Shown: positions 33,949-61,363 of the stretch, in pieces
Layout: each line of letters begins with the position of its first letter
Position numbering within the stretch: position 1 is the stretch's first letter
Source of the DNA: Geovibrio ferrireducens
GTDB taxonomy: Bacteria; Chrysiogenota; Deferribacteres; Deferribacterales; Geovibrionaceae
Assembly: GCF_026226615.1 (NCBI RefSeq)
Contig: NZ_JAJAPB010000005.1
Location: 62,001-126,000, forward strand
DNA: 64,000 bases
Direction of reading: 5' to 3'
The notes under the pieces: model-generated
Told to the model about the DNA's origin: nothing
Database searches by the model: none
What the model saw: the letters and a program-made list of their open reading frames with translations, nothing else
Position numbers and translations under genes: made by a program

Positions 33949-33973
33949 TAGTATGAATCCGTGCGCTCTTTAT

Positions 33974-34075
33974 TACTGTATGAATCCGTGCATCCTGCCG
34001 GATTCATACACACGCTCGCGCCGTGATAAACACGGCTTCGCTCCGCACGGCGCGCTCCCATCCATGGGAGCGTAC
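33974..34075. repeat. Palindromic three-hairpin repeat, copy C
   Basis: Hairpin 1 is TGTATGAATCCG / CGGATTCATACA around loop TGCATCCTGC (33977-34010). It runs into CACGCTCGCGCCG, a spacer of about 24 bases ending CTTCGCTCCGCA, CGGCGC (pairing with GCGCCG) and hairpin 2 CGCTCCCAT-CC-ATGGGAGCG (34050-34069). The same frame recurs near 59.8 and 60.3 kb with different stem sequences. The first 50 bases recur exactly at 34107-34156. Confidence 0.8.
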
Positions 34076-34106
34076 TTTCCCCGCATCTCGTTTCTGCGCT
34101 CTGTTT

Positions 34107-34156
34107 TACTGTATGAATCCGTGCATCCTGCCGGATTCATACACACGCTCGCGCCG
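34107..34156. repeat. Palindromic repeat, truncated copy D
   Basis: Fifty bases identical to 33974-34023: hairpin 1 and CACGCTCGCGCCG, after which the copy stops. The central and second hairpins are missing. A partial echo (GTATGAATCCGTGC) also lies at 33951-33964. Confidence 0.8.
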
Positions 34157-34187
34157 CAGTAAAAGAAGCAATGGAAAATAGAAAGAA

Positions 34188-34222: not shown

Positions 34223-34278
34223 ATTTCCCGGATTATTCAGCACTCCGAAGAGGTGAAGAATCCCTGAACTGATACTGA

Positions 34279-34311
34279 AAAAGCCCTCTGAAATTATTTC
34301 AGAGGGCTTTT
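34279..34311. terminator. Bidirectional terminator after the large cytochrome operon
   Basis: A perfect 15-base stem AAAAGCCCTCTGAAA / TTTCAGAGGGCTTTT with loop TTA, about 60 bases beyond the end of the last cytochrome gene on the minus strand. A- and T-rich flanks allow termination in both directions. Confidence 0.85.
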
Positions 34312-34372: not shown

Positions 34373-35422
34373 TTAAAAAAGGTTTGTCTTATCCCCATAG
34401 CCTGCGCCGTGGTAGTGGCAGTTTGTGCAGTTGGAGTCATAGCCGCTGGGGTGTACAACCTCCTGAAGTCCGTTGCCGGTTACTGCTCCGTCAGGGCTCA
34501 TGTGGCAGAGGGCGCAGAGCTCAGTGAAGTTATTTCCCTGAACGCTCACAGGTGCGTTGAACGCATCAGAATCAGCGTCTTCCGCACTGTCGCCGGACTG
34601 GGTTATCAGGTATGAGTTGTCGGATGTATGCACATCATGGCAATGTGTGCAGCCAACTTCCATCGCTGATGTATAGGAAGCGCCGGGGCGGAACTGGCCG
34701 AATGTCTGTCCGAGGCCGTCCTTTACTCCGTGAATATCAGCAGTGAAGGTTTGCCCGGCTATGCCTCTGAATGTGTCGAATATATTTGTGAAATCACCGT
34801 CAAAAGCCAGTGAAGGCGGTGTAATGCCGAAGGCTCCGTTTCCGTCATGGCAGTTCAGGCAGAATTCCGTTTTTGTGCTGTATGCCGCCGCACCCTGTCT
34901 GAAATCTCTGGTGAGGCTGATTTTCCCATTCATATCAGTGTATTCGTGGCATATCACACAATCTGAGTTTCCTATTTTGCCGTCACTGTCAAGGTCGTGC
35001 ATAGTTGTGTGCCCCCCGAAAAGACCGGCAGAGGCAACTATGGACGGGTTGGAGTGGCAGAGAGTACACTGGTAGCTTTCCGCTGTAACATCTTTTATTC
35101 CGTTTGTTCCGTGGCAGTAGAGGCATGCGCCTATGTCACCCGCACCGACTTTTTTGAAGCTGGCAGGGAGCGCAGGGTTGTATTTGTGTATTTCATCAAG
35201 CTGCTTTGCAGGGTGGCAGAGGGAACAGTCCTTCCTTTCCCATCCGCTGTGGCTTTTGGAATCCACAAGCTGAGGTATCCCTATGGCATTTTTCTGGGCG
35301 GCAGAATTGCTGGAACTGTTGCTGCCGCAGGCTGAGGCTGAGGCCAGAATCATTAAAGAAACAATGCAGTAAATAAAAACTCTCACGGATTCACCCCGTT
35401 TTACTGTTATAGGTTTTGTCAT
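34373..35422 (-). CDS. Octahaem c-type cytochrome, probable lipoprotein
   Basis: A 349-residue cytochrome with eight CXXCH sites (CSLCH, CLYCH, CTLCH, CVICH, CLNCH, CTHCH, CALCH, CTNCH). The N-terminal signal ends ASASAC, so Cys32 may be lipidated, followed by a Ser/Asn-rich linker. A calcium-type loop HDLDSDGKIGNSD lies between haems 3 and 4. It is the last gene of the eleven-gene cytochrome operon, two bases after another cytochrome gene and close to the beta-barrel gene, so an outer-membrane or surface position is likely. Confidence 0.92.
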   Translation of the reverse strand: MTKPITVKRGESVRVFIYCIVSLMILASASACGSNSSSNSAAQKNAIGIPQLVDSKSHSGWERKDCSLCHPAKQLDEIHKYNPALPASFKKVGAGDIGACLYCHGTNGIKDVTAESYQCTLCHSNPSIVASAGLFGGHTTMHDLDSDGKIGNSDCVICHEYTDMNGKISLTRDFRQGAAAYSTKTEFCLNCHDGNGAFGITPPSLAFDGDFTNIFDTFRGIAGQTFTADIHGVKDGLGQTFGQFRPGASYTSAMEVGCTHCHDVHTSDNSYLITQSGDSAEDADSDAFNAPVSVQGNNFTELCALCHMSPDGAVTGNGLQEVVHPSGYDSNCTNCHYHGAGYGDKTNLF

Positions 35423-35424
35423 TT

Positions 35425-35994
35425 TCAGTTAGTCCTGTGGCAGTCGATGCAGAAAGATGCCTTATGGCAGCTGTCGCAGGATGCCGGATCCATCATAGCC
35501 TCAACAGAGTGCCTGAGTTTAAATGCCCTGGGGTGTCTGTAACTTTCGGCAGAATATTGTTTGCTGTGGCAGCTTTCGCAGTACCAGTCGGAGTGGCAGC
35601 TTTCGCAGCTTTTCTTATCCAGAGCAGCGGGCACGGCATGCATCTGCGTCCACTGTGTGAGGTGGTCTTCCGGCTTCATGGTTTTCAGGTTGTCATGGCA
35701 CACATAGCAGTTTTGCGGAGCGGAGACGACCTTGGTTATCTCCTCCTTGTGGCATGTGTGGCATGTGTTGTCTATCTTGAGCTCTGCGCCGATTTTGAAA
35801 TCGCTTCCTTTATTGATAAAAGTTTCTATATCGGGCAGCTTGTGGCAGTAGAAGCAGTCCTTTTTCTGTTCAAACAGAATGTTTACGTGCTGCTCATGGT
35901 TGAACTTCACATAAGGGGACTGGTAGTAAAACTTCGTACAGCCGAACAGAAGAACCGGCAGAACCAGTAAAAACCATGTCAATCGCTTATTCAT
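35425..35994 (-). CDS. Heptahaem c-type cytochrome, probable lipoprotein
   Basis: A 189-residue protein with seven CXXCH sites (CFYCH, CHTCH, CYVCH, CESCH, CESCH, CDSCH, CIDCH). Extra His residues (FNHEQHVN near the N-terminus, LRHSVEAMMD near the end) could be distal ligands, as in cytochrome c3/c7-like folds. The signal ends LLFGC (Cys19), consistent with a lipoprotein. Packed haem density (one per 27 residues) indicates a wire-like function. Lies directly after the beta-barrel gene. Confidence 0.92.
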   Translation of the reverse strand: MNKRLTWFLLVLPVLLFGCTKFYYQSPYVKFNHEQHVNILFEQKKDCFYCHKLPDIETFINKGSDFKIGAELKIDNTCHTCHKEEITKVVSAPQNCYVCHDNLKTMKPEDHLTQWTQMHAVPAALDKKSCESCHSDWYCESCHSKQYSAESYRHPRAFKLRHSVEAMMDPASCDSCHKASFCIDCHRTN

Positions 35995-36024
35995 CTATTT
36001 TCCTCAGTATATTTATATTACTTG

Positions 36025-37296
36025 TCAGAAGCTGTAAGTAGCTTTCACACCGTACCTGTTTTCGGGCAGGTAGCGGGTTTCCCTGTTGTTCTCAGCGTAA
36101 ACACCCAGAGTGAGGTCTTTTATAACGTCATACTCCAGTTCGCCGTATATGGAGTAGATAGACTCTTCCTTATCCATACCGACTGTTCCGTTTTTGATTT
36201 CAGAACGCCCCACATACTCCGCCTCAAAGGAGAATCTCAGTTCCCTGAGTATGCTCCAGTCAAGGGAGAAGCTTACGCCGTTTGCCTCTGAATCGCTGCC
36301 GTCATACAGGTACACCTCAATATTTGAGGTGAGGCCGTGGCTTTTGAAGTGGTTCACATTCGCGCCGAATTTATAGATGTCTCCCGTGACCCATTCGCCG
36401 AAATTGTTCAGGAGAACAACGTGAGTGGTTCCCTGATAAACGGTGTAGTGGTCGGTCAGGGCGTATTCCACAGTGTATGAATACCTGTCCTCCTTGCCGG
36501 AGGAGAAGTTAGATATAATAAGATTTCTATGTCTTTCTGCGCCGTCTTCAACTCTGATTCTCGTTGCGTCCGCTATGAGGCCGAGCTTTTTATGGCGGGC
36601 ATAAACCCTTGCCATACCCCTGTAAATATCGTTATCTTCCATGTCGTAGTCGATCTTGCCGTCAAGAGAAAGGAAAACCGTTTTGTCCCTGAGAGATACA
36701 AATCTCCTGCCGAGGCCGATTCCCGCAAGCTCCTGAATGGTTCTGTCGCCGTCCTCCTCCTTGGAGTAGGAAACATAGCCTGAGTAGTTTTTAACACCGT
36801 TGAGGAATATGCGTCCCCCGTAGAGCCTGTCACCAGTATCACGCAAAGTTTCATCAATATTGATTTTTCTGTCATCTGTATTGAAAAGCTGTGGTTTACC
36901 CCCGAAAGCCGTCACTCCGAAGCTCCAGTCTGTTCTGACTGTTGCTTCCGCACCGTCAAGGGTGAGAAATCTGTTTCCCATGAAGGAAAATCTGCCGAGC
37001 TTGATTTCAAGAGCCCTTTCAAAGCTGGTGAACTCAAGATAGGCCGAGTAGATGTCCGTGAAGCTTTCCCCCTCCTCCTCGGAATATGTTCCGTGGAAAT
37101 TAAAACCGAGGTAAGGATTGATAAGCTTAACATTATCAAGTATCAGCGTATTTTCCCATGTTCCTTCCGTCTTCCCCCCTTTTTCCTCGGAGCTTTCATA
37201 AGAAGTAGAGAAAGAGCCTTCAATGCCGAATGAGTGTGCACTCTGCACTGCTCCCGCTAAAAGAACAAAAATTAAAAATCCCCTTAAAAGTTTCAC
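36025..37296 (-). CDS. Outer-membrane beta-barrel, candidate porin of a porin-cytochrome complex
   Basis: A 423-residue protein with a signal peptide (about 1-22) and alternating aromatic/polar strands throughout (for example IFLNGVKNYSGYVSYSKEED), ending in a terminal Phe (GVKATYSF) as outer-membrane proteins do. No Cys or haem sites. It resembles MtrB/PioB-type barrels only in role and neighbourhood: it sits between lipoprotein cytochrome genes, as the barrel does in porin-cytochrome conduits. It is shorter than MtrB (about 670 aa). Around 18-20 strands seem likely from its length. Confidence 0.82.
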   Translation of the reverse strand: MKLLRGFLIFVLLAGAVQSAHSFGIEGSFSTSYESSEEKGGKTEGTWENTLILDNVKLINPYLGFNFHGTYSEEEGESFTDIYSAYLEFTSFERALEIKLGRFSFMGNRFLTLDGAEATVRTDWSFGVTAFGGKPQLFNTDDRKINIDETLRDTGDRLYGGRIFLNGVKNYSGYVSYSKEEDGDRTIQELAGIGLGRRFVSLRDKTVFLSLDGKIDYDMEDNDIYRGMARVYARHKKLGLIADATRIRVEDGAERHRNLIISNFSSGKEDRYSYTVEYALTDHYTVYQGTTHVVLLNNFGEWVTGDIYKFGANVNHFKSHGLTSNIEVYLYDGSDSEANGVSFSLDWSILRELRFSFEAEYVGRSEIKNGTVGMDKEESIYSIYGELEYDVIKDLTLGVYAENNRETRYLPENRYGVKATYSF

Positions 37297-37311
37297 TCTG
37301 TTCTCCTGAAA

Positions 37312-39495
37312 TTAAAATGAAGTAAGGTCGTTTATCGAGAGCTCCAGCAGTCTCGTTGCGTAACGGTAGTTATGCAGACCGAAGCTTTTATCCGAAATTA
37401 TAAAGTTGTAGTTATACGCGGCGCGGTTAAGCGCATCCGTAAGGGCAGTGTTGCCTGTTACGCTGTAAGATGCGGATATTTCACTGCCGGAAGCACGTCC
37501 CGCGAGGGTGTTTATACGCTCTTTAAGCGTGTTCATAAGTGTTCTGACACCCGCTGTTCTGCCCAGATAGTCGTATCTGCCGTCAGCATCAGCCGTGACT
37601 CCCGCATGGCATGAATCGTTGCAGTATGCGATCCTGTCGCTTCTGTTTTCGCTCATGGTCATGCTGTGGGTTTTGCCCGCATCCCTGTTCATGTGGCAGT
37701 CTGCGCAGTCAAGCAATGCTTTGTGAGCCGTGGTAAGGTTGGGAGTTTCGCCGTATGTCCAGCCGCCCTTGCCCTCAAACATCTCCGCCTGAGCGTTGTG
37801 GGGAACAGTGCCTATTCCGGCTCCGTTCGTGTTGTGGCACATGTAGCATATTTTACCGTCTCCCGCGCTGACAGTTACACTGCCGCTGTACAGCGTGAGC
37901 GTATGACTGCCGGAAACCCTAAGCTGTGCGTTGTGTCCGCCTTCCCCGTGGGGGTCATGGCAGACGTTGCAGGTGATTCCGCTGATTTTATCTGTCTTGT
38001 CGCGGGTTATATCCACGCCGAATATCATTCCGAGGGCTCCTTCTCCGCTGTGGCACTTGAAGCAGGCCTCATTTGTCACAACGATGGAGTTTGATACCGT
38101 ATGGGCATTTTCATGTGTGCTTTTGCCTGTTGAGTTATAAAACTCTGCGAAGTGGCCGCCGCTCTTGCCTGTGTCATGGCAGGTGAGGCACACACCGGAG
38201 GCGAAGGATGTTGTTTCCGGGTGTCCCATGAACCTGATAGTTCCGCTCAGGCCGCCTATATAGGTCGCTGTGGGTCCGTGGCATGCTTCACAGGTGACTC
38301 CTTTAAGATGCGCGGAGGCGGTGGAGGCATTTGTATTGACAGTCATTGTATCATCAAAACCGTAAACTGCGGGATAGTCGTCTGTTCCGTTGCCGCTTCT
38401 GTCAGCAAAGAAATTTCCTGTTCCGTGGCATACTGCGCATTCAGTGCTGTTGGCGTTGGTTACTGCGGTGTTGTATGCTCCGGCGTGGCCGCTTGCGCTC
38501 CAGACGGACTGGAGATCTCTCATTATCTCCCTGCCGTATCTGTCTTTGTACTCAGGTGCGGTTACGGAACCGTTGTGACAGAAAAGGAGGCAGTAGGACC
38601 TGTTGTTGTTTTTATCGTATGAATATCCGTAGACTTTTATTTCAAGGCTTTCGGATGCTGTTTTTATGCTTCCGGTCACTGTTGCGCTTACTGTGTAGCT
38701 GCCGAACGTGTCGGGGATGAACATGGCGCTGCTGCCTGAAATTGAGGGGGCAACCGATGAGCCGTCAGGTTTTTTCACTGTCCATACCACATTAAGTATG
38801 TCGTCCCCGAATGCGGCAGCATCTATATCCATCGCGACTTTCTCGCCGGGCTGAACATTCGAAGTTCCCCTTATTATGTCAGGGTTCTGTATATTGGAGG
38901 GATCTGTGAAGTATTCATTGTCTGCAAAAGCCTCTCTGTAGCTTTTGGAAAGGAGTTTAATGAATTTTTTTGACGATGGAATCTCAGCCGCATTCAGGTA
39001 GCCCGCAAAGAAGCTGAGCGGAATGTCGGTGGAGGCGCGTATAATCCCCGCCGCGGGTTTTGTTGAGGACTGAATAACGGCGCTGTTGTTCAGGATTGCA
39101 AGGAAAACTGTGTTGGCATCCGTAGCTGTGCCGGACAGAGTGTACGGTATGGTGACTACTGCATCATATATGGCAGCGGGGGCGGAAGAAGAGACTTCAT
39201 CTGTGAACCTGACTGAGAACACGGGTGAAAGAGCTGTATATCCGTCTTTCACATAGGCAGAATCAGTTCTTTCTATATATGCTGTTCTGCCCGCCATTGC
39301 AGGAACGCTGGCCGTAACGGAAAAGCCCTCGAAAAGCCCCGTGCCTGTATAGCTGAGCGTTCCGTCGGACGATACCGCGGCGGTGACGATTGTTCTTGTC
39401 TCTGTGTCAACGGAAGGTTTTATATGGTCACTTCCGCCGCATCCTCCGATATAAGCTGCGCTTAATATAATCAATAGGAGTCTAATAAATTTCAT
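37312..39495 (-). CDS. Large multihaem cytochrome lipoprotein (7 CXXCH plus 2 CXXXCH)
   Basis: A 727-residue lipoprotein (signal ending IGGC, Cys19). The first 300 residues are beta-rich and cytochrome-free, with Ig-like strands (GEKVAMDIDAAAFGDDILNV, YTVSATVTGSIKTASESLEI). The rest has CAVCH, CEACH, CLTCH, CFKCH, CNVCH, CYMCH and CADCH, flanked by two CXXXCH sites, CLLFCH at the start and CNDSCH at the end. Size, lipid anchor and N-terminal adhesive-like domains suggest an outer-surface terminal reductase. Precedes the barrel gene by 15 bases. Confidence 0.9.
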   Translation of the reverse strand: MKFIRLLLIILSAAYIGGCGGSDHIKPSVDTETRTIVTAAVSSDGTLSYTGTGLFEGFSVTASVPAMAGRTAYIERTDSAYVKDGYTALSPVFSVRFTDEVSSSAPAAIYDAVVTIPYTLSGTATDANTVFLAILNNSAVIQSSTKPAAGIIRASTDIPLSFFAGYLNAAEIPSSKKFIKLLSKSYREAFADNEYFTDPSNIQNPDIIRGTSNVQPGEKVAMDIDAAAFGDDILNVVWTVKKPDGSSVAPSISGSSAMFIPDTFGSYTVSATVTGSIKTASESLEIKVYGYSYDKNNNRSYCLLFCHNGSVTAPEYKDRYGREIMRDLQSVWSASGHAGAYNTAVTNANSTECAVCHGTGNFFADRSGNGTDDYPAVYGFDDTMTVNTNASTASAHLKGVTCEACHGPTATYIGGLSGTIRFMGHPETTSFASGVCLTCHDTGKSGGHFAEFYNSTGKSTHENAHTVSNSIVVTNEACFKCHSGEGALGMIFGVDITRDKTDKISGITCNVCHDPHGEGGHNAQLRVSGSHTLTLYSGSVTVSAGDGKICYMCHNTNGAGIGTVPHNAQAEMFEGKGGWTYGETPNLTTAHKALLDCADCHMNRDAGKTHSMTMSENRSDRIAYCNDSCHAGVTADADGRYDYLGRTAGVRTLMNTLKERINTLAGRASGSEISASYSVTGNTALTDALNRAAYNYNFIISDKSFGLHNYRYATRLLELSINDLTSF

Positions 39496-39514
39496 ATGTT
39501 ATCCTCGTCAATCT

Positions 39515-40507
39515 TCACTTGCCTTCTGCATTGTGCTTATCTGTAAGAACCTTAAGAAGTTCAGCCGTGTTTTCTTCGCTGTGGCATTTTGCGCATAGCT
39601 GCTCTTTGCTTACTTTATCCGTACTGAGCAGGAGCGGATCGTTTGAAAAGTGCGGTGTGTGGCAGTCCGCACAGTCCAGAGTTTTGTTGAACTTAGGCAT
39701 AAACACTTTATCCACAGGGTGAAACTTGATGTAGCTTTTCTGATGGTAGTTAAAGCCGAGTTCGCTTGAGGCGTGGCATCCGTCACAGAGTTCGTTCACG
39801 GGTTTCCTGAGATGGGTTTTATCCGTGGATTTGTGCGGTGAATGGCATATTGTGCAGAATCCTGCTGCGACGGGGCCGTGTACATACTGAGCGGGCTTCA
39901 TCTGTATGCTGAAATTGTTATGGCATTTGAGGCAGGTTTCGGAAAACGGCTCCTGCGGGATAAGGTTGTTGTCCTTTTCATGACACTCAAAGCATTTAGC
40001 CTGTTTAACAGGGGCGTGCACCCATGTGCCCATGAATTTGTCCCGGTGACAGTTTACACAGTCATTGAGATCCTGAAATCTGTGGCAGTTGAGACATATC
40101 TCTCTTCTGTCACTGCTGTGGAAGTTCATGTAGCCTTCGGTCCAGTCACTGATAGTGGTCGGGGAGTTAACCTTGTTTATCTGCACAGTGTTCACATCCT
40201 TTCCCTGCGAAATAACAATAGTGTTATCGCCCGGATTAAGCTTGAGAATGGTCATGAGCATATAAAAATTCTCGCCGTTCGCATTCTTCGACTCAATGAG
40301 CTTCTTGACACTTTTTACACCGTTTATCTCAATAGTTACCGGATCTTTAACCGATGACTTTCCGATGATATGTATGTCGCTGACAGACTTCACTTTATTA
40401 GTGATCGGGAAAATTATGTCCAGTTTAGCAAAAGCCTGCGGGGTGAGCAGGAAAAAGCTACTCAGAACCAATATTATAATTTTCCGGCAACCGAATCTCT
40501 TCAGCAT
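39515..40507 (-). CDS. Octahaem c-type cytochrome with N-terminal beta-domain
   Basis: About 330 residues from the ATG at 40507 (MLKRFGCRKIIILVLSSFFL), preferred over one eight codons earlier. A signal peptide is followed by an Ig-like domain of about 95 residues (LDIIFPITNKVKSVSDIHII, LKLNPGDNTIVISQG) and then eight CXXCH sites (CLNCH, CVNCH, CFECH, CLKCH, CTICH, CDGCH, CADCH, CAKCH). VHAPV/VHGPV segments before haem pairs recur and match those of the 15-haem protein at 61-62.7 kb. Overlaps the end of the upstream TPR protein gene. Probably periplasmic. Confidence 0.9.
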   Translation of the reverse strand: MLKRFGCRKIIILVLSSFFLLTPQAFAKLDIIFPITNKVKSVSDIHIIGKSSVKDPVTIEINGVKSVKKLIESKNANGENFYMLMTILKLNPGDNTIVISQGKDVNTVQINKVNSPTTISDWTEGYMNFHSSDRREICLNCHRFQDLNDCVNCHRDKFMGTWVHAPVKQAKCFECHEKDNNLIPQEPFSETCLKCHNNFSIQMKPAQYVHGPVAAGFCTICHSPHKSTDKTHLRKPVNELCDGCHASSELGFNYHQKSYIKFHPVDKVFMPKFNKTLDCADCHTPHFSNDPLLLSTDKVSKEQLCAKCHSEENTAELLKVLTDKHNAEGK

Positions 40508-41393
40508 GTGCACTGTCCCCTCGTGATTCATATATTTTTTTCAGGTAATAATTGACTTTGTTCTTATCCTCATAACGGTCTTTGACACCGTTCAGAATTT
40601 GCAGGGCTTTATCGCTGTCGCCTTTAAGGTAAGACGCTATTCCGCTGTAAAGGATACATTCTGTGCTGTCCGTGCAGGAGGAGAAAACCTCATAGGCGCG
40701 CTCAGCCGCTTTCAGACGCAGATAGGTCTGCCCCAGCAGAAGCTTGCCCTTGTCATCCAGTTCGGCGGCATTAACCTTGTCCATCTCGTGTACTGCTGCT
40801 CCAAGCTCGCCCTTTTTGGCAAGCATCAGCACCAGATTCATACGAGGAACGATTTTTTTATAGTTTTCAGCCTTTTCCGCAGCATCAATCATTTCTGCCA
40901 GTCTGGCTTCATCTGTTTTGCCTGCGAGGTAGGAGAGATACACCGGCGTAAGCGAGGCAAAACTGCCGTCCTTACCGATCACTCCGGCGGGCTTACCCTC
41001 TCTGGCAAAAACCATGTAGGGCGCATCCGCATCGGGAGCCGCCCTGTATATACAGGCCTTGCTGTCGGACTTTTCAAAAAATGAAGTGAGCGTTTTTTTA
41101 TCCGCACCGGAGACATCGGCGCAGAAGCACTTCACCCCTTCAAAACCTTTACAGTCCTTGAGGTATTCCGCAAGAATATTGAGATCGAATCTTTTGGTAT
41201 GATCAAAGAACAGCACCGCCTTTCCGCCATGGGGAGATTTAATCTCTGAAACGGCCGAAAAAACGGGCTCCGCAGCGGAAGCGGCCTGAAGCGCGCTTCC
41301 GGCATCCGCAGCATGGGCGCCGGCAGCTGAAAAAACAGCCGCTGAGAGCGCCGCAGCAAAAAAAGTGTTTCTCATAACTGAAAATGAAAGCAT
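40458..41393 (-). CDS. Periplasmic thioredoxin-like/TPR protein of the cytochrome operon
   Basis: A 311-residue exported protein (signal about 1-28). The first half has a thioredoxin-like strand order (GGKAVLFFDHTKRFDLNILA, APYMVFAREGKPAGVIGKDG) but no CXXC at the active position. The second half consists of TPR helices (MNLVLMLAKKGELGAAVHEM, LGQTYLRLKAAERAYEVFSS, ILYSGIASYLKGDSDKALQI). The same architecture recurs at 60434-61354 beside another multihaem gene. It may scaffold or assist assembly of the large cytochromes; that role is inferred. Confidence 0.8.
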   Translation of the reverse strand: MLSFSVMRNTFFAAALSAAVFSAAGAHAADAGSALQAASAAEPVFSAVSEIKSPHGGKAVLFFDHTKRFDLNILAEYLKDCKGFEGVKCFCADVSGADKKTLTSFFEKSDSKACIYRAAPDADAPYMVFAREGKPAGVIGKDGSFASLTPVYLSYLAGKTDEARLAEMIDAAEKAENYKKIVPRMNLVLMLAKKGELGAAVHEMDKVNAAELDDKGKLLLGQTYLRLKAAERAYEVFSSCTDSTECILYSGIASYLKGDSDKALQILNGVKDRYEDKNKVNYYLKKIYESRGDSAHAEEIRLPENYNIGSE

Positions 41394-44300
41394 TTACTTA
41401 CCCTGAAGTTTTTGCAGGTTCTGCTGTATAATGAACAGGTTCCTGAGCACTTCGGATTCGCCTATTTTTTTATTTCTGCCCTGTCTGTACGCCTTGTCAT
41501 GATATTTGGAGAAGAGTTCCTCCGTCAAATCGCCGTGGCATACCCTGCAGAATTTGTCTTTTACTTCAAGCTTCAGGAAACTGTCTTTATCAGTTCCGTC
41601 CACATTGTAGGCTGCCTCCGTGCTTCCCTTTTTCCAAACGTGCGGGTCGTGGCATGTCTGGCAGGTTATAGAACCTTCCGCAGATACCTTGCCGCCGTCA
41701 TCATACAGGAAAGCTTTGTACTGCTCCCTGTACGGGAATATTTTAAATATCCTGTCATGAGCGGTGACTTCCGGGATTTTTTTGTAGCCGTAGCCGTCCT
41801 TCTTATGGCAGTCGCCGCACATTTCAAACGCGAATACTGATTTTCTGCCCTGCTCAAAAGCCCACATAAGTCTGTTGTCCTTGTGGAAATTATGAGGCAT
41901 ATGGCAGACATAGCACGCGTTGGTTTCCGCTGTCTGTCTGACTTTTTCGGTCATGTAGTCCAGCTTAGCGAGGTTATGCTCCGAGTATACAACAGGTTTC
42001 TGATCCGCATGGCAGGCAAGGCACATATTGCTTTCGCCGGTGTCTCTCACCATACCCTTAACGGCCCCGTGTACATCGTGGCATGTAGAGCATACTATTT
42101 TTCCATCAAGAAGGTAAATATCAATTTCCTTTTTAAGTTTAACATTTGTCGGGTGGCTTGTTGTAATTTTTGTTTTTTCCGCCGCTTTTCCCTCACTGTG
42201 GCAGCTTTTGCAGATTTTCTCAAAATCTGTTCCCAAGGCTTTGTCAAAGAGGAAATATCCGCTGTTGTGCACCATGTGGCATGCACCGCAGGAGTTTCCT
42301 TCATCCTTTGCCTTGGCAAATTCAGATACGTGCTTCTCAAAGTTGGCAACATTGTGCTTGGACTTGGCAAAGTCCTTTTTATCGCTGTGGCAGCTCTGGC
42401 AGAAGTTGCCGTCCTTCATCAGCTCTTTGTTAAGGAAGCTGTTACGGAAGGTTCCTTCCTCGCCTTTTTTGGGGCCGTTCTGGTGAACAGTGTGGCAGCC
42501 TGAGCAGTACAGGTAATACCCGCCGTCCTTTTCTGTGAGGAACTTGCCGTATTTCTCATGTGCTTCTATCTTGCCGAGCTTGTGTCCGTCATGCACTGTT
42601 TTCTTGGACGCGGAGCCTTTTTCATTGTGGCAGACATAGCAGTAGTCGTCCTTGGTTTTGTATGCGTATTCGAGGGTCATAATATTGCCGTCGGTCTTGG
42701 CATTATGAACACTGTGGCACTGGGCGCATACGGGAGCTTCCGCCTTGTCCTTCTCCCTTATATCATGGTCTGTTCCTGCTATCTCTTTCTTGCCTTCGTG
42801 GCATGCTGAGCAGAAGTCATCGAAGTCACCGAAATCACCCCGCAGGAAATCTTTGTCTATTTTGCCTTTTTTGGAAGGCCTGTGCGGGTCGTGGCAGCTT
42901 GTGCATGTGAAGGTTTCATCGGTGAGCTTAAAGCGCTCGTCAACCTTACCCTTGGTTTTCATATTCACAGGGTGAGAGTGCGCTCCGATCACCTTCTTCT
43001 CCGCGCTTCCGCCGGGTTTGTGGCAGTCCGTGCAGCCGTCATCCTCTTTTTTGACAAGAAGACGCTTGTTGGTGCTGTTGTGCACCTTATGGCAGTCAAG
43101 GCAGCCGTTTTTCAGCTTCTCTTTACCGTGGAGAGTGTTTTCCACCATTTTCTTTTCATCATGGCAGACTATGCAGAGGGCGCCGTTTACAGCCTCCACT
43201 CTGAGGAAGTTTTTATCCTTGGAATGCACATCGTGGCAGGTGGCGCATGTTACCATTCTCTGTTTGGATTTATCGCCGCCTATTTCAGTGAAGAATTTTT
43301 TTACCTCGCCGAAAAGAGGGAGTTTTTCATATGATTTCATATCCGCCTTGATGTCCTTGCCCACCGGGTGGTTGAACATTGTGGAGGAAATGATTTTCTC
43401 CTTTGCGAACCCTTTTTCCTTATGGCAGCTCATGCATCCTTTGGTGATCATATCGTCATTAGTGTTAGGCAGAGCCAGCGACCATCCGTGGGGATCGTGG
43501 CAGCTTTCGCATGTACCTTTCTGCTGTGCGGTTTTGCCGTCCTTGGTGACGAACCCTTTCACTGTTTTCATGTCGTGCTTGGAATCAAGCACTGTTTTCT
43601 GCCTTTCGTGGCAGACAAAGCAAAGCGAGTTGTCGGTGTTGCTCCGCAGGAGCAGTGTCTCTGTCTTGGCTTTGTGGACGGAGTGGCACGTAAGGCATAT
43701 CACTTCGTTGCCTATGCCGTATGAGCCGCCCTCGGCCTTGATCTTGCTCACCTGAGTGGCATTGTCCTGCTTTATGTTAATCGGGTGGTTCAGCATGCCT
43801 TTAAGGTAGTTGTGATCCTTGTCGTCGCTTACCTTGTCAAGGTGGCATGTTGCACAGAGTTCCGAATGGTTTCTGTAGTTAATGAGGAGCTTCTCCTCTT
43901 TGGGTGAGTGCGGCGTGTGGCAGCTCTGGCAGATTACCTCGCCTTTTGCGCCGAGTTTGCCGTCAAGCTTATGTATCCTTGAAGCTATTTCATCCCTGTT
44001 TTCCTTAACAGGGCTCATGGGGTGGGTTATGCCCATTTTTGCGGAGCCTATATCCTTATGACAGGCTTTGCAAAGCTCTGAATTGGCATTTTCCATTCTT
44101 AAGAATACGCTTTTTTCAACACCCTCATCCCTTGGCGCGCCTGTTGAGTGTGCTGAGTGGCAGGTACGGCAGTCAATCTTGCCGTTGTTAAGCGGAAGAT
44201 TGCCGGGGATTGACATATGCGCGGGGATTTTATCGAGCTTGTGAACGTCACCTGTCCATATTTTAATGCGGCTGTCCCCCACTGTTCCGTTGTGGCAGGA

Positions 44301-44507
44301 GAAGCACATTCTTTCGGTGGCGACCACTTTTTCCTTCTGAAATTCGACCAGCGGCGTTCCTTTGAGGTCAAAGAGAAATTCAGGCATCCATTCATAGTGA
44401 CAAATGGAGCATTCCTTTGAGGAATCGGGGTTCAGTTTTTCTTTTTGAGCCTCTGCGCTGAAAGAGCAAAATATCAGGGCTGTGAGTAAAAACAACAGAC
44501 TTCTCAA
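41394..44507 (-). CDS. Giant 28-haem c-type cytochrome
   Basis: A 1037-residue exported protein (signal about 1-20) with 28 CXXCH sites by direct count, from CSICH to CRVCH. They come mostly in pairs with the pattern CxxCHxxHxxx..LCxxCH, e.g. CQSCHTPHSPKE then ELCATCH, and CATCHDVHSKDKNFLR then LCIVCH. The repeat HP(I/V/M)-type segments between pairs (NHPINI, NHPVGK, SHPVNM, SHPTNV) look like copies of a unit of about 75 residues. No membrane anchor or lipobox. Lys-rich. It would be a long periplasmic or exported electron wire. The final 60 residues form a haem-free helical tail. Confidence 0.95.
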   Translation of the reverse strand: MRSLLFLLTALIFCSFSAEAQKEKLNPDSSKECSICHYEWMPEFLFDLKGTPLVEFQKEKVVATERMCFSCHNGTVGDSRIKIWTGDVHKLDKIPAHMSIPGNLPLNNGKIDCRTCHSAHSTGAPRDEGVEKSVFLRMENANSELCKACHKDIGSAKMGITHPMSPVKENRDEIASRIHKLDGKLGAKGEVICQSCHTPHSPKEEKLLINYRNHSELCATCHLDKVSDDKDHNYLKGMLNHPINIKQDNATQVSKIKAEGGSYGIGNEVICLTCHSVHKAKTETLLLRSNTDNSLCFVCHERQKTVLDSKHDMKTVKGFVTKDGKTAQQKGTCESCHDPHGWSLALPNTNDDMITKGCMSCHKEKGFAKEKIISSTMFNHPVGKDIKADMKSYEKLPLFGEVKKFFTEIGGDKSKQRMVTCATCHDVHSKDKNFLRVEAVNGALCIVCHDEKKMVENTLHGKEKLKNGCLDCHKVHNSTNKRLLVKKEDDGCTDCHKPGGSAEKKVIGAHSHPVNMKTKGKVDERFKLTDETFTCTSCHDPHRPSKKGKIDKDFLRGDFGDFDDFCSACHEGKKEIAGTDHDIREKDKAEAPVCAQCHSVHNAKTDGNIMTLEYAYKTKDDYCYVCHNEKGSASKKTVHDGHKLGKIEAHEKYGKFLTEKDGGYYLYCSGCHTVHQNGPKKGEEGTFRNSFLNKELMKDGNFCQSCHSDKKDFAKSKHNVANFEKHVSEFAKAKDEGNSCGACHMVHNSGYFLFDKALGTDFEKICKSCHSEGKAAEKTKITTSHPTNVKLKKEIDIYLLDGKIVCSTCHDVHGAVKGMVRDTGESNMCLACHADQKPVVYSEHNLAKLDYMTEKVRQTAETNACYVCHMPHNFHKDNRLMWAFEQGRKSVFAFEMCGDCHKKDGYGYKKIPEVTAHDRIFKIFPYREQYKAFLYDDGGKVSAEGSITCQTCHDPHVWKKGSTEAAYNVDGTDKDSFLKLEVKDKFCRVCHGDLTEELFSKYHDKAYRQGRNKKIGESEVLRNLFIIQQNLQKLQGK

Positions 44508-45370
44508 TTTTTCTCCTTTAACTGAAAAATGAATACTGTTTTCTCAAAGGCATCCACCACGGCGAGTGTGCTTCCGGTTACCCTGATATGGGTCACGGAA
44601 CCGAATTTCAGCTTTTTGCCGTTTGTATCAGTGAGAACGCCCGCAAATTTTCCGTCTTTATCGAAATACTGTATGAGACCCGTATATCCGTCGGCAACGA
44701 GCAGCTTATCACCCTTGAGGGCTATGCCTGTGGGGCGGTAGAACTGCCCCTGATTGATACCCCAGCCGCCGATAAATTCGTAAAATTTCAGTTCCTTTGT
44801 GATTTTCTGTATTCTTGTGTTGAGAACTTCGGAAACAAGAAGATGACCTGCCTGATTGAAGGCAACGGCGTAGGGATACCAGAACTGGAGGCGCTCCTTG
44901 CCGTATTTTCCCGCACTTGCAGCTTCCTTTGCCTCAGCAAGGTCAATTTTGACTATTCTGTGGTTGTCATTATCCGCCACATAAGCATAGCCGCCGCTGA
45001 CCGCAACATCTGTCGGGTCGAAAACAGCCAGCTTTGCTGAGGAATAAACCTCAAACTTAGGGGAGAGCATGTCCAGAGAATTGCCTTTATTGTTGCAGTA
45101 AAGATAGTAGTTGCCGTTCTTGACAAAACAGTTGCCGCCTTTAAGGAATTCTTTTTTAACGGAGGAAACGGCACTGCCGTTTCTGTAGATGGTGTAGCTT
45201 CCGTTAAAGGCGTCGTATATTCCGGCTGTATCTGCTGATTCGATTACAACGTCAGCCGGAGTTGCCTGTTTTCCGGATGTGACTTTATACAGAAGGGACG
45301 CGCTGATCTCCAGCGCGTGCCCCTGTGTTATTGCCGAAAATATTATTACTACCGCAAGTAAGAGTCTCAC
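44504..45370 (-). CDS. Exported NHL-repeat beta-propeller protein
   Basis: A 288-residue protein with a signal peptide (about 1-19) and four to six NHL-like blades: FDPTDVAVSGGYAYVADNDN, HRIVKIDL, PYAVAFNQAGHLLVSEVLNT and RPTGIALKGDKLLVADGYTG. NHL proteins are common companions of multihaem cytochrome clusters in metal-reducing bacteria. No haem site. Overlaps the 28-haem gene by four bases and abuts the trihaem gene; likely a structural or docking partner. Confidence 0.88.
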   Translation of the reverse strand: MRLLLAVVIIFSAITQGHALEISASLLYKVTSGKQATPADVVIESADTAGIYDAFNGSYTIYRNGSAVSSVKKEFLKGGNCFVKNGNYYLYCNNKGNSLDMLSPKFEVYSSAKLAVFDPTDVAVSGGYAYVADNDNHRIVKIDLAEAKEAASAGKYGKERLQFWYPYAVAFNQAGHLLVSEVLNTRIQKITKELKFYEFIGGWGINQGQFYRPTGIALKGDKLLVADGYTGLIQYFDKDGKFAGVLTDTNGKKLKFGSVTHIRVTGSTLAVVDAFEKTVFIFQLKEKN

Positions 45371-46216
45371 TTAGTTTTCCTCGCTGGGTTTCAGGAAGTT
45401 CGGTATGTAAAATTCCTTATACCTGTCGATCATGCCTGCAACCTCGTTTCCGACTATCTGCGCCATCCTTCTGTCCGTGTAGCCGATCTCCCTAAGAGGA
45501 AGGTAAGCTTCGTTTACGTTGGGGTTGTGGCACTCGTTGCATTTAACTGAGTCCTCAAGCTTTGTCATGGGTCTGTGAATCACTTTCAGAGAAGCGCTCT
45601 TCGCAGCGGGAACCATTTCACCGACCTTGCTTTTGAACTCGCTGACATATTTTTTCATAGGCTCAGCGTCAAACACTCTGGGCTCTGTTCCGCCTCTTTT
45701 AAGGGGCATGAGTTTATACGGAGTGTCCTCAAGGAAGAAGCCGGGGTCTATGCTGGGCTTTTCATCTCCTGTAACCTTGTCATACCAGACATACTTATGG
45801 TCACCGGGAGTTTCGCTCTTAACGTGGCATGTTTCGCATGCCATGAAGTAAGCGTGCATATTGAGGAAAGCCCTGATCTCCTTTTTCTTGTCGTGGGGTA
45901 CGTCCCCGTGGCAGGAAACACAGAGGTTGCGGCTGTCTGTGACGCCTTTTGCCTCTGACTTGTGGAAATCATAAAGCTTGTGGATCTGGCTTATATCCTT
46001 GTACGCAAGGCCTGCGTTCTGGGCATCTACCCCTTTCAGCATTTCCTGATACAGCCTGTCCTCTTTGCTGAGGCTGTCCGCGTGGGCTTCACCGTGGGGG
46101 GTGTGATGCCATATGTGCATAACGAGTATGAACACTATATAAGTGGAGTATACAAGGAACGCTATCCCTGCCAGGCAGTATAAATATCTTACAAAAGCGG
46201 GTCTCTGCTTACTCAT
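45371..46216 (-). CDS. Membrane-anchored trihaem cytochrome c
   Basis: A 281-residue protein with one N-terminal transmembrane helix (about 11-33, YCLAGIAFLVYSTYIVFILV) and a periplasmic part with three CXXCH sites (CVSCH, CETCH, CNECH) plus several further His. It is not a typical NapC/NrfH (which have four haems). Overlaps the cytochrome b gene by eight bases, so it probably belongs to the same quinol-oxidising complex. Confidence 0.88.
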   Translation of the reverse strand: MSKQRPAFVRYLYCLAGIAFLVYSTYIVFILVMHIWHHTPHGEAHADSLSKEDRLYQEMLKGVDAQNAGLAYKDISQIHKLYDFHKSEAKGVTDSRNLCVSCHGDVPHDKKKEIRAFLNMHAYFMACETCHVKSETPGDHKYVWYDKVTGDEKPSIDPGFFLEDTPYKLMPLKRGGTEPRVFDAEPMKKYVSEFKSKVGEMVPAAKSASLKVIHRPMTKLEDSVKCNECHNPNVNEAYLPLREIGYTDRRMAQIVGNEVAGMIDRYKEFYIPNFLKPSEEN

Positions 46217-47135
46217 GGTGAGAACCTCCCCTGTTGTATTTGCCGCCGGTGGTGCTTTCCTTCATAAATTCGATCTGCTCTCTTATGAGCTCTATTTTTT
46301 CCTGATTGGTAAGCATTTCAGCTTCCCTCTCCTTATCAAGGTCAAGAAGACGTGAAGGGTCTTTCTCCACTATGCGGTTTATCCTCGCCCACTCCATGTA
46401 GTACTCATGCTTCATGAGATGCTCAGGCAGATAGCCTGTCATGAACAGAGGCGACATGGGGAACTTGTCGTAGTTAACGTGAGCGTTGTACATGTGCCAT
46501 ATGAAGATAACGCTGACGGCAAGCATAGCCTCGTCAGAGTGGGCAATGTAGCTGATGTTCACCGCCCAGCCGGGAAGGAATGTTGTAGCCCATACGGGGA
46601 ACCACAGGAAAAGACCCGTGAGGCCGAGAACGGGAATACCCCAGAACACCGCCCAGTAGTCAAACTTTTCTCTCCAGTGGAATCTCTCGTGCTTGGGCAT
46701 ATCATCGCTTATGAAGAGAGCGTATTTTATGAACGCCGCTATATCCTGCGCATCCTTCTTACGGGGGCACATGGGTGAGTAGTAGACAAAATTGCCGAAC
46801 TCGCCCCATGAGAAGGTTCCGGTTTTTTTAGCCGGTATGATGTAGTTTACTGCCATGTTCTTAAACAGGTAGTACCAGTGGTAGAAGAACTGAGCCACCA
46901 TGATAACACCGCACACCCTGTGGATGAGCCTTGTTACGTGGAGCCCGCCGAACATTTCTATCATGGGTTTTGCCCATGGGTAGAAGTGGAACTTAAGCGG
47001 GAAGCCCGTAGCCACGAGGAGTATGAACGTGACCATGATAAACAGGTGCTGAACTCTCTGGTTCTGAGTGAGTTTCAGGTAGTGTTTTTCGCCGTTTTTT
47101 ATTTTAACTAATGGTAATCCTTTCATTTCTGTCAC
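46209..47135 (-). CDS. Membrane dihaem cytochrome b, quinol-oxidising subunit
   Basis: A 308-residue integral protein of the HydC/FdnI/thiosulfate-reductase cytochrome b type. His-bearing helices include RVQHLFIMVTFILLVATGFP, LIHRVCGVIMVAQFFYHWYY and LAVSVIFIWHMYNAHVN. About five membrane helices, then a cytoplasmic tail rich in charged residues. Geobacter CbcL fuses a multihaem domain to such a b domain. Here the multihaem protein (next gene upstream) and the b protein are separate. Likely oxidises menaquinol. Confidence 0.88.
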   Translation of the reverse strand: MTEMKGLPLVKIKNGEKHYLKLTQNQRVQHLFIMVTFILLVATGFPLKFHFYPWAKPMIEMFGGLHVTRLIHRVCGVIMVAQFFYHWYYLFKNMAVNYIIPAKKTGTFSWGEFGNFVYYSPMCPRKKDAQDIAAFIKYALFISDDMPKHERFHWREKFDYWAVFWGIPVLGLTGLFLWFPVWATTFLPGWAVNISYIAHSDEAMLAVSVIFIWHMYNAHVNYDKFPMSPLFMTGYLPEHLMKHEYYMEWARINRIVEKDPSRLLDLDKEREAEMLTNQEKIELIREQIEFMKESTTGGKYNRGGSHHE

Positions 47136-47143
47136 CCCCGCTC

Positions 47144-48199
47144 TTAACCGTTTTTCTTACGTCTGAAACTCAGTTTCGGGAACATTATCCTGATGAGTTC
47201 GAGAATCATAAGACCCTGAAGCATGAAGAACACGCCGAGGGTAAGTACGGTGAAAGCAAGAGCCACCCAGAACTCAATGGGGTAGAGGTCTTTATCGATC
47301 ACAACGTGCATTCTGATCAGACCGAACTCCCTAGTGGTGTTCGCGTGGCATCCTTCACCCTCACAGGACTTGTACCTGTTTTCCACATAAGTGGCGCTGT
47401 CGGGGCTTTTATGGCTGAGTATCTTGTGAACGGACTGTCCGTCTCTCACGTGGCAGTCGATACAAGTGGGCGCATTTTCCATACCGAACTCAACCGCCTT
47501 TCCGTGGAAGGTGTCAAGATAGGTGCTGGCCGCGTTTTTCAGCTTGTGTTTTTCCGCCATGTCGTCCCTTGAGTGGCACTTGCTGCATGTTTTAACAACA
47601 TCTTCGCTGGCGGAGAGGTTTTTGATTCTGTGGGTTACGTGGTTGAAATAGTATTTGTAAGAAGGATCCTGATCGTGGCAGACACTGCATTTCTGGAAGA
47701 TTTTGTCCTGACTTCTGGCATCGTGCACATCCCTTACATCGTCAGTTATGAAACGGTAAGTGGGGTTGCTGTGACAGTCGGTACAGGTGGGAAAATCCTC
47801 TGCAATGCGGGCATTCACGTGTTCGTTATCAACATTGTGAATGCTGCCTTTGAGCTCTTCCACGATTTTTTTGTGAGAGAAGGGTTTGGCCGAATCACCC
47901 ATTGTTATGTGGCATTCGGTTGCACAGTCTACGATCTTGGCTTCTTTGTGAGGTATTTCCTTAATGTCCGTGTGACATCCCGTACACTTGACCTTTGTGT
48001 GTACGGAGTGGGCATACCTGTCGGAATCCACGTAGAACTGTCTTAAATATCCTTCGTCGCTGACCCTGCTGAGACCGGGATACTTGTGACACATCATGCA
48101 GTTTTCATCGTCCGGAACCATGGACGCAGCATGTGCGGAAAGCGTGCCGAACAGAATGCCGACAGCCATGATGGTAAATAAGAAAAATATTCTCATCAT
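47144..48199 (-). CDS. Membrane-anchored multihaem cytochrome c (6 CXXCH, 1 CX3CH, 1 CX4CH)
   Basis: A 351-residue exported protein, first gene of the operon. A signal peptide (about 1-24) is followed by CMMCH, CTGCH, CATECH, CTDCH, CSVCH, CSKCH, CIDCH and CEGEGCH, then a C-terminal transmembrane helix (about 310-335, WVALAFTVLTLGVFFMLQGL) and a short basic tail. Of the eight sites, two have three or four residues between the cysteines. Its end is nine bases before the cytochrome b gene. Best read as the haem-rich partner of the quinol-oxidising complex. Confidence 0.9.
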   Translation of the reverse strand: MMRIFFLFTIMAVGILFGTLSAHAASMVPDDENCMMCHKYPGLSRVSDEGYLRQFYVDSDRYAHSVHTKVKCTGCHTDIKEIPHKEAKIVDCATECHITMGDSAKPFSHKKIVEELKGSIHNVDNEHVNARIAEDFPTCTDCHSNPTYRFITDDVRDVHDARSQDKIFQKCSVCHDQDPSYKYYFNHVTHRIKNLSASEDVVKTCSKCHSRDDMAEKHKLKNAASTYLDTFHGKAVEFGMENAPTCIDCHVRDGQSVHKILSHKSPDSATYVENRYKSCEGEGCHANTTREFGLIRMHVVIDKDLYPIEFWVALAFTVLTLGVFFMLQGLMILELIRIMFPKLSFRRKKNG

Positions 48200-48588
48200 C
48201 CACTCCAGTTTTTTTAAATAAAAGAAATTAAAACAGAAGGTTATATTTCCTAGTTTCCATCTAGACTAAAAGATCTAATCTGTGTTGTCAATAAAGATAC
48301 TGCGTTTTGGAAATGATATGCCGAAATTATTGAAAATACAAAAATCCGCATATTCATAAGTATTTCAATGATTAGCAAACATATGTTATCACAGGGTTTG
48401 GAGCATAGGTCATTTTAGGGTAAAGGACAGGAACAGCGTTATAAAAAACACGGTTTTACTTGAGCTTTACCGCTGTTTCCGGGCACATTTCGATAGGCAT
48501 AGCTATATTATTGATGCAAAAGATAATAATAATATTTATTTACTAGGTTTTCTGTTTTGCTGAAAAGTCTTATTGAAAATCAGTAAGA
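48200..48588. promoter_or_regulatory. Promoter region of the large cytochrome operon
   Basis: 389 AT-rich bases between two minus-strand genes. No gene is seen. A long imperfect inverted repeat ATTGAAAATAC (48329-48339) / GTATTTCAAT (48360-48369) lies about 130-170 bases upstream of the first cytochrome start. I found no sigma-54 element here. The promoter is presumably in the AT-rich 48210-48340 stretch, but no clear -35/-10 pair stands out. Confidence 0.4.
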
Positions 48589-58356: not shown

Positions 58357-58370
58357 GAGGGAGGCTCAAA

Positions 58371-61354: not shown

Positions 61355-61363
61355 AAAATCTCC

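What the first reader, a model, noticed from the sequence alone, without database searches (positions are those of the whole stretch)
34373..48199. Eleven-gene multihaem operon resembling a complete quinol-to-surface electron conduit
Seen: eleven minus-strand genes with overlaps or very short gaps encode a cytochrome b, seven multihaem cytochromes (8, 3, 28, 8, 9, 7 and 8 haem-type motifs, about 71 in total), an NHL propeller, a thioredoxin-like/TPR protein and a beta-barrel. Known: porin-cytochrome conduits combine a barrel with lipoprotein cytochromes, and CbcL-type complexes join a b-type domain with multihaem modules. Inference: this operon carries electrons from menaquinol to an extracellular acceptor in one transcription unit. 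The gene set and order do not match Mtr, Pcc, Ext or other conduits I know.
Basis: partly seen in the sequence, partly recalled or inferred. Interest (0 to 1): 0.88.

Follow-up and report, generated by a model that had tools for sequence, protein, structure and literature searches.

The report
Complete electron-export operon in Deferribacterota
Eleven adjacent bacterial genes encode what looks like a complete electrical wire from the inner membrane to the cell surface; its inner half is a rearranged form of a gene cluster already noticed in related iron-reducing bacteria, its outer half is different, and no part of it has been tested experimentally.

Summary
Genes A-K (48199 to 34373, minus strand) run with gaps of -74 to +30 bp and end at an intrinsic terminator. 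They carry 71 haem-binding motifs, conserved in aligned orthologues apart from one sequence at one motif. The 11-gene order is identical in 8 related genomes of one family (one is cut within A by a contig end).

The electron-conduit reading is well supported by homology, but the claim that it matches nothing known is only partly right. A+B is a split form of the CbcL type of menaquinol oxidoreductase. A-B-C-NHL-E, plus diverged F and G, is the front of the 19-gene Deferribacter cluster already published as a probable or remnant metal-reduction system. The outer half differs: barrel I (22 strands predicted) and 7-haem lipoprotein J belong to a two-gene unit found across many bacterial families.

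Inner (A-E) and outer (I-J) modules share one cluster in three lineages with three gene orders, the strongest evidence for a single quinol-to-surface path. Acceptor and direction of flow are unknown; the homologous Deferribacter cluster also occurs in a species in which Fe(III) reduction has not been demonstrated. Verdict: a new variant of a known kind.

The parts
47144..48199 (-). A: octahaem cytochrome, signal peptide and C-terminal TM helix (305-341); split-off multihaem half of a CbcL-type quinol oxidoreductase
   Evidence: matches the N-terminal multihaem half of fused cytochrome b proteins
46209..47135 (-). B: membrane cytochrome b (b561/FdnI type), 8 invariant histidines; menaquinol oxidation site (inferred)
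   Evidence: PF01292 3.5e-11
45371..46216 (-). C: trihaem cytochrome with N-terminal TM anchor
   Evidence: fused to B in L076
44504..45370 (-). D: secreted NHL beta-propeller, scaffold (inferred)
   Evidence: PF01436 1.3e-13
41394..44507 (-). E: secreted 28-haem cytochrome, periplasmic relay (inferred)
   Evidence: 28 CXXCH conserved in 14 of 14 sequences; PF09699, PF22113
40458..41393 (-). F: secreted thioredoxin-like/TPR protein without CXXC, assembly factor (inferred)
   Evidence: weak TPR match; sequence
39515..40531 (-). G: secreted octahaem cytochrome, periplasmic
   Evidence: PF09699 8e-24
37312..39495 (-). H: 9-haem lipoprotein with PKD-like N-terminal region, surface cytochrome (inferred); fastest-evolving gene
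   Evidence: lipobox, 9 conserved motifs; PF00801; identities
36025..37296 (-). I: outer-membrane beta-barrel, 22 strands predicted, no plug
   Evidence: AlphaFold2 pLDDT 80.9; Foldseek
35425..35994 (-). J: compact 7-haem lipoprotein, partner of the barrel
34373..35422 (-). K: octahaem lipoprotein, surface cytochrome (inferred)
   Evidence: lipobox, 8 conserved motifs; PF22113 7e-11
34277..34310 (-). intrinsic terminator ending the unit
48200..48588 (-). conserved intergenic region before A, presumed promoter region

Best explanation
The operon encodes one continuous electron path from the menaquinol pool to the cell surface. Step 1 (homology shown, activity inferred): B oxidises menaquinol and passes electrons to the c-haems of A and C; A+B is a split version of the CbcL type of inner-membrane quinol:cytochrome oxidoreductase. 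Step 2 (inferred): the secreted 28-haem E and 8-haem G carry electrons across the periplasm, with the NHL propeller D and the thioredoxin-like/TPR protein F as scaffold or assembly factors. Step 3 (gene pairing shown by conservation, structure inferred): barrel I, predicted with 22 strands and an empty lumen, holds the compact 7-haem lipoprotein J so that electrons cross the outer membrane. Step 4 (inferred): lipoproteins H (9 haems) and K (8 haems) take the electrons at the surface and reduce an extracellular acceptor; Fe(III), Mn(IV) or sulfur species are candidates, none demonstrated.
For: Eleven-gene order identical in 8 related genomes of four genera; terminator after K. Fused proteins elsewhere match A then B, including a 619-aa 9-haem CbcL-like protein (B 151 bits, A 98 bits) in G355, a genome with five PpcA-type cytochromes. 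A-B-C-NHL-E recurs in other phyla (L074 in part, L076, L079, L080, L091). Inner and outer modules sit together as A-K in the family, as A-B-C-D-E-I-J-K in G016, and as barrel-J-7haem-A-B-C-D-E in L079/L091. J-like cytochromes lie directly after a haem-free 380-485-aa protein in nearly all loci inspected. Barrel model with 22 strands, best TM-scores 0.54-0.57 to TonB receptors. Family-level identities B ~71, A ~67, J ~62 versus H ~40% fit the published rule that inner-membrane cytochromes evolve slowest and surface ones fastest (PMC12977616).
Against: No expression, localisation or phenotype data. J could not be modelled (pLDDT 43), so J inside I is unproven. Barrel homology across phyla is uneven: several barrels beside J-like genes do not match I. 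The homologous cluster exists in D. desulfuricans, where Fe(III) reduction has not been demonstrated (PMC13186404), and the full operon in Denitrovibrio- and Seleniivibrio-titled genomes that are not known to me as Fe(III) reducers.
Confidence: 0.72

Rival explanations
1. Same membrane path, reverse or bidirectional use: electrons enter from an extracellular donor (partner cell, reduced mineral, metallic iron) and reduce the quinone pool.
For: Sequence cannot give direction; multihaem conduits can run both ways (established for Mtr/Mto-type systems, own knowledge). The cluster is present in species without demonstrated Fe(III) reduction (PMC6896113, PMC13186404).
Against: A+B belongs to the CbcL type, whose characterised member is needed for reduction of low-potential extracellular acceptors (PMC9129911).
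Confidence: 0.12
2. Two functions in one operon: A-G form a periplasmic respiratory chain to a soluble acceptor, and the barrel I with J, H and K is a substrate channel or a surface enzyme system not wired to A-G.
For: A-E occurs without I-J-K in Deferribacter-type clusters and L074, L076, L080; I-J-K occurs without A-E in G032, L067-L069. In other operons barrel-J pairs go with molybdoenzymes.
Against: The two modules are joined in three lineages with different orders, and the Deferribacter form of A-E has its own large barrel-like protein.
Confidence: 0.1
3. A decaying or non-functional remnant, as proposed for the homologous cluster in D. desulfuricans.
For: Published proposal for Deferribacter (PMC6896113, PMC13186404). 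G011 carries a deletion of A-D and of residues 1-595 of E; G008 and G009 lack B and the A-K barrel I.
Against: All 71 motifs and all reading frames are intact in the window, the order is kept in 8 related genomes of four genera, and no motif is lost at family level down to 38-71% identity.
Confidence: 0.06

Closest known systems
Deferribacter 19-gene multihaem cluster (DEFDS_0741-0760; FHQ18_02900-02990)
   Same: A-B-C-D-E orthologous and collinear (39-66% identity over the aligned genes except D, ~37% over part), F and G as diverged counterparts; the 13-haem and F-like genes are elsewhere in the window.
   Different: H, I, J, K absent there; instead a 794-aa barrel-like protein unrelated to I, PpiC, NHL lipoproteins, three tetrahaem and two decahaem cytochromes and a two-component pair.
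CbcL (and CbcBA) quinol oxidoreductases of Geobacter
   Same: b-type membrane cytochrome joined to a multihaem c module; A+B matches a 9-haem CbcL-like protein in a Geobacter-like genome.
   Different: Split into two genes plus a third, trihaem subunit; octahaem rather than 9-haem; encoded with its outer-membrane conduit. CbcBA sequences not compared.
Ext-type porin-cytochrome conduits (ExtABCD, ExtEFG) of Geobacter sulfurreducens
   Same: Barrel + small multihaem lipoprotein + larger multihaem lipoprotein(s); a relative of I (profile probability 96% over ~150 residues) next to a pentahaem J-like lipoprotein and a 16-haem lipoprotein in G355. ExtB is predicted with 18 and ExtE with 21 membrane strands (PMC6148476).
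   Different: J has 7 haems; two large lipoproteins H and K; quinol oxidase and 28-haem relay in the same operon. Direct comparison with ExtB/C/E/F sequences not done.
MtrCAB
   Same: Design principle: barrel, cytochrome inside or under it, surface cytochrome.
   Different: Barrel of 423 aa/22 predicted strands against MtrB's 26; 7-haem J against decahaem MtrA.
Propeller + giant cytochrome operons of ANME-partner sulfate reducers
   Same: Giant multihaem cytochromes next to a beta-propeller protein (PMC5539420).
   Different: No PPIase here; that operon's four core genes include no cytochrome b or barrel.

Membership tests
Deferribacter 19-gene cluster | collinear A-B-C-NHL-28-haem core with cytochrome b561 | tested here: met
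Deferribacter 19-gene cluster | 13-haem, tetrahaem, decahaem genes, 794-aa barrel-like protein, PpiC, NHL lipoproteins and HK-RR inside the cluster | tested here: not met
   only a 13-haem and F-like pair and an RR homologue (40%) elsewhere in the window; homologue of the large barrel not found in the genome
CbcL-type quinol oxidoreductase | sequence homology of b domain and of the multihaem module preceding it | tested here: met
   (G355 identified as Geobacter-like by five PpcA-type genes)
CbcL-type quinol oxidoreductase | single fused polypeptide with nine c-haems | tested here: not met
   A and B are separate genes; A has 8 motifs
CbcL-type quinol oxidoreductase | menaquinol oxidation and need for low-potential extracellular acceptors | not testable with these tools
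   needs mutants
porin-cytochrome conduit (general) | outer-membrane barrel + periplasmic multihaem cytochrome + outer-membrane lipoprotein cytochrome in one cluster (criteria of PMC6148476) | tested here: met
   I, E/G, and H/J/K with lipoboxes; surface location predicted only
porin-cytochrome conduit (general) | physical complex that moves electrons across the outer membrane | not testable with these tools
   J model failed
ExtABCD / ExtEFG | sequence homology to ExtB/ExtC or ExtE/ExtF | tested here: inconclusive
   relatives of I and J with an ExtBCD-like layout in a Geobacter-like genome; named sequences not available
ExtHIJKLMNOPQS | rhodanese lipoprotein, ExtI porin, selenoprotein ExtKL, Rieske protein | tested here: not met
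   no such genes among A-K; no NCBIfam hit for I
MtrCAB | MtrA decahaem + MtrB 26-strand barrel + MtrC decahaem | tested here: not met
   423-aa barrel with 22 predicted strands; no PDB sequence hit for I and no MtrA hit for J; MtrC/MtrF-like domain in E, H, K only as a general multihaem domain

The most novel reading that the evidence does not exclude
A modular quinol-to-surface respiratory chain that several phyla assemble as one transcription unit: a split CbcL-type quinol oxidase plus NHL protein and a giant periplasmic cytochrome, plugged into a compact 22-strand barrel holding a 7-haem lipoprotein, an outer-membrane conduit smaller than MtrAB. In other operons the same barrel-cytochrome pair would feed DMSO/selenate-family molybdoenzymes anchored at the outer membrane.
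Probability: 0.35. Interest if true: 0.78.

Novelty: new variant of a known kind. Interest (0 to 1): 0.56.

Why it matters
Known conduits are usually encoded apart from their quinol oxidase, so which inner-membrane enzyme feeds which outer-membrane conduit has to be worked out with mutants. Here the genome ties both ends together, and the linkage recurs with different gene orders in this family, in another family of the order and in Desulfurobacterium-like genomes, which makes the pairing a direct, testable prediction. It also gives the Fe(III)-reduction system of Deferribacteres, described as unresolved in PMC6896113, a defined inner core (A-E) with two alternative outer-membrane modules. The compact barrel + 7-haem pair is a good structural target for the minimum size of a trans-outer-membrane wire.

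Tried and rejected
AlphaFold2 of J failed (pLDDT 43) and was not used. Solved-structure searches gave nothing for A, only FdnI at E 0.025 for B, weak generic multihaem hits for J and nothing meaningful for I. The HK-lipoprotein-RR genes at 30060-33398 were considered part of the unit and rejected: a terminator and ~970 bp separate them, and in congener G002 they lie on the other side of the cluster. A sigma-54 promoter scan found no site upstream of A and fewer matches than chance. No inverted repeats flank the inverted block. I as ExtI: no NCBIfam hit. I as a relative of the large Deferribacter barrel-like protein: rejected. G011's missing A-D as an assembly gap: unlikely, the 257-kb contig runs past the deletion and the E remnant is 93% identical to a relative's. 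Paper searches for Desulfurobacterium and for Geovibrio thiophilus gave no description of this operon.
Full report
OBSERVATION. The eleven ORFs exist at the stated coordinates on the minus strand. In transcription order: A (octahaem, C-terminal TM), B (cytochrome b561 family), C (trihaem, N-terminal TM), D (NHL), E (28 haems), F (thioredoxin-like/TPR), G (8 haems), H (9-haem lipoprotein), I (barrel), J (7-haem lipoprotein), K (8-haem lipoprotein). Gaps run from -74 to +30 bp. A perfect 14-bp stem with a U-rich tail ends the unit at 34310-34277. The 71 motifs (67 CXXCH, 3 CX3CH, 1 CX4CH) are not chance: residue shuffles give 0.0-0.2 CXXCH per protein, and the motifs are conserved in 9-16 aligned orthologues per gene with a single exception in one sequence.

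CONSERVATION. The window lies on contig C5 of a 2.97-Mb, 46-contig genome. A search with B found it in nine family genomes including this one, and strongly in nine genomes of other families of the order. In the 8 related family genomes the order A-K is identical (in G010 the contig end cuts A). G008 and G009 lack B and the A-K barrel I. In G011, A-D and residues 1-595 of E are gone while F-K are intact and the rest of E is 93% identical to a relative's, which looks like a recent deletion. The organism is probably a Geovibrio or close relative: a congener MAG is titled Deferribacterales, and other family members are titled Seleniivibrio and Denitrovibrio. Species identity is inference.

LINK TO THE PUBLISHED CLUSTER. 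G025 has a contig of exactly 2,234,389 bases, the D. desulfuricans SSM1 chromosome length (PMC6896113, Table 1). Its cluster reads 10-haem, A, B, C, NHL, 28-haem, 13-haem, F-like, G-like, NHL-type lipoprotein, HK, RR, three tetrahaem genes, a 794-aa barrel-like protein, a PpiC-like protein, an NHL-like lipoprotein, 10-haem: 19 genes, with the cytochrome b561 third. [quoted passage not shown]). A-E of the window are collinear with it; F and G are diverged counterparts (22% and 32%). H-K are absent from it, and the corresponding large barrel-like protein of G020 is unrelated to I and has no homologue found in this genome. In the window the 13-haem gene (61% identical) and an F-like gene (35%) sit at 62668-60434.

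INNER MODULE. Fused proteins in other bacteria match A over their N-terminal part and B over their C-terminal part. In G355, which carries five PpcA-type cytochromes and so behaves like a Geobacter, a 619-aa protein with nine CXXCH matches B at 151 bits and A at 98 bits; CbcL has nine c-haems and a two-haem b domain (PMC9129911). A+B is therefore a split CbcL-type quinol oxidoreductase by homology. B has eight invariant histidines in 16 orthologues. A-B-C-NHL-E recurs outside Deferribacterota: L080 (E with 34 haems), L076 (B fused to C; E with 38 haems), L079 and L091 (28 and 24 haems) and in part L074. E thus belongs to a family of giant cytochromes of variable length.

OUTER MODULE. AlphaFold2 on ten sequences gives I 22 strands and no plug (pLDDT 80.9). 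Foldseek's highest TM-scores (0.54-0.57) are to TonB-dependent receptors, which are 22-stranded (own knowledge), but overall superposition is poor. J-like cytochromes, including partial matches, were found in 80 of 385 genomes. In the loci inspected the gene directly upstream is a haem-free protein of about 380-485 aa, usually within 30 bp. Most exceptions are ORFs split by a stop, extended into the barrel gene or cut by a contig end; two are real differences (L088, where a 552-aa 4-haem protein precedes, and L078). Several of these barrels match I by profile comparison and others do not, so the pairing is conserved more clearly than the barrel sequence. Partners vary: multihaem lipoproteins, fused CbcL-like proteins (L081, L093, L094), or DMSO/selenate-family molybdoenzymes with Tat signal plus a ferredoxin-like protein (L085, L086, L095).

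WHY ONE PATH. A-E and I-J stand in one cluster in this family (A-K), in G016 (A-B-C-D-E-I-J-K) and in G060/G208 (barrel-J-7 haem-A-B-C-D-E). G060's contig length suggests Desulfurobacterium thermolithotrophum (from memory, not verified). Three arrangements of the same two modules argue for functional coupling rather than inheritance of a fixed block. Divergence by gene at family level (B ~71, A ~67, J ~62, E ~59, C ~57, D ~54, G ~53, K ~51, I ~50, F ~46, H ~40%) puts the inner-membrane proteins and J as slowest and H as fastest, matching the location rule reported for Geobacter and Shewanella cytochromes (PMC12977616). J's slowness fits a protein held inside or under the barrel (inference).

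LIMITS. Co-transcription, localisation, direction and acceptor are untested. J could not be modelled. PMC13186404 reports 'Omc system' genes in most genomes of the clade that includes this family; I could not tell whether those are genes of this operon.

VERDICT. Real, conserved, and best read as a quinol-to-surface electron conduit. Its inner half is already known as a cluster in Deferribacter; its outer half and the complete arrangement are a new variant.

Noticed in passing
window 60434-62668 (-): A 13-haem cytochrome (61% identical) and an F-like protein (35%) that are neighbours inside the Deferribacter 19-gene cluster lie about 12 kb upstream of gene A here; in congeners G001/G002 they lie just downstream of K in opposite orientation.
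   Followed up: partly
window 30060-33398 (-): Histidine kinase, small lipoprotein and sigma-54-type response regulator (40% identical to the Deferribacter cluster's regulator) lie downstream of the terminator; candidate regulator of the operon.
   Followed up: partly
window ~34-60 kb versus L026/L046/L070 (G002): Relative to congener G002, the block carrying A-K and the neighbouring molybdoenzyme genes appears inverted between the HK-RR genes and the 13-haem/F-like pair; no flanking inverted repeats were found.
   Followed up: partly
L085 6066-11214; L086 (three copies in 20 kb); L095 4655-8647: Multi-copy modules in Deferribacterota: ~380-480-aa barrel + 5-6-haem J-like cytochrome + DMSO/selenate-family molybdoenzyme with Tat signal and apparent lipobox + FeS protein, suggesting outer-membrane or surface molybdoenzymes fed by a barrel conduit.
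   Followed up: partly
window 55762-58982 (+): A Tat-signal protein with a lipobox-like motif (TLGCGSSSSS) followed by a ferredoxin-like gene resembles those molybdoenzyme pairs but has no barrel gene beside it; family not scanned.
   Followed up: no
window 33970-34160: Two near-identical copies of a ~55-bp element (cggcgcgagcgtgtgtatgaatccggcaggatgcacggattcatacagtaa) in the intergenic region after K.
   Followed up: no
L079 5685-15049 and L091 3717-12675: Small-genome bacteria (possibly Desulfurobacteriaceae) carry an 8-gene version, barrel-J-7haem-A-B-C-NHL-E, apparently the minimal form of the conduit.
   Followed up: partly
L017-L024: Chloroflexi/Dehalococcoidia MAGs have an A(7-haem)-B pair, in several followed by a 5-haem gene, with no barrel module seen nearby: a related quinol oxidase.
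   Followed up: partly
L064 (G011): Family member with A-D and the first 595 residues of E deleted but F-K intact: a natural deletion strain for testing the outer half.
   Followed up: partly
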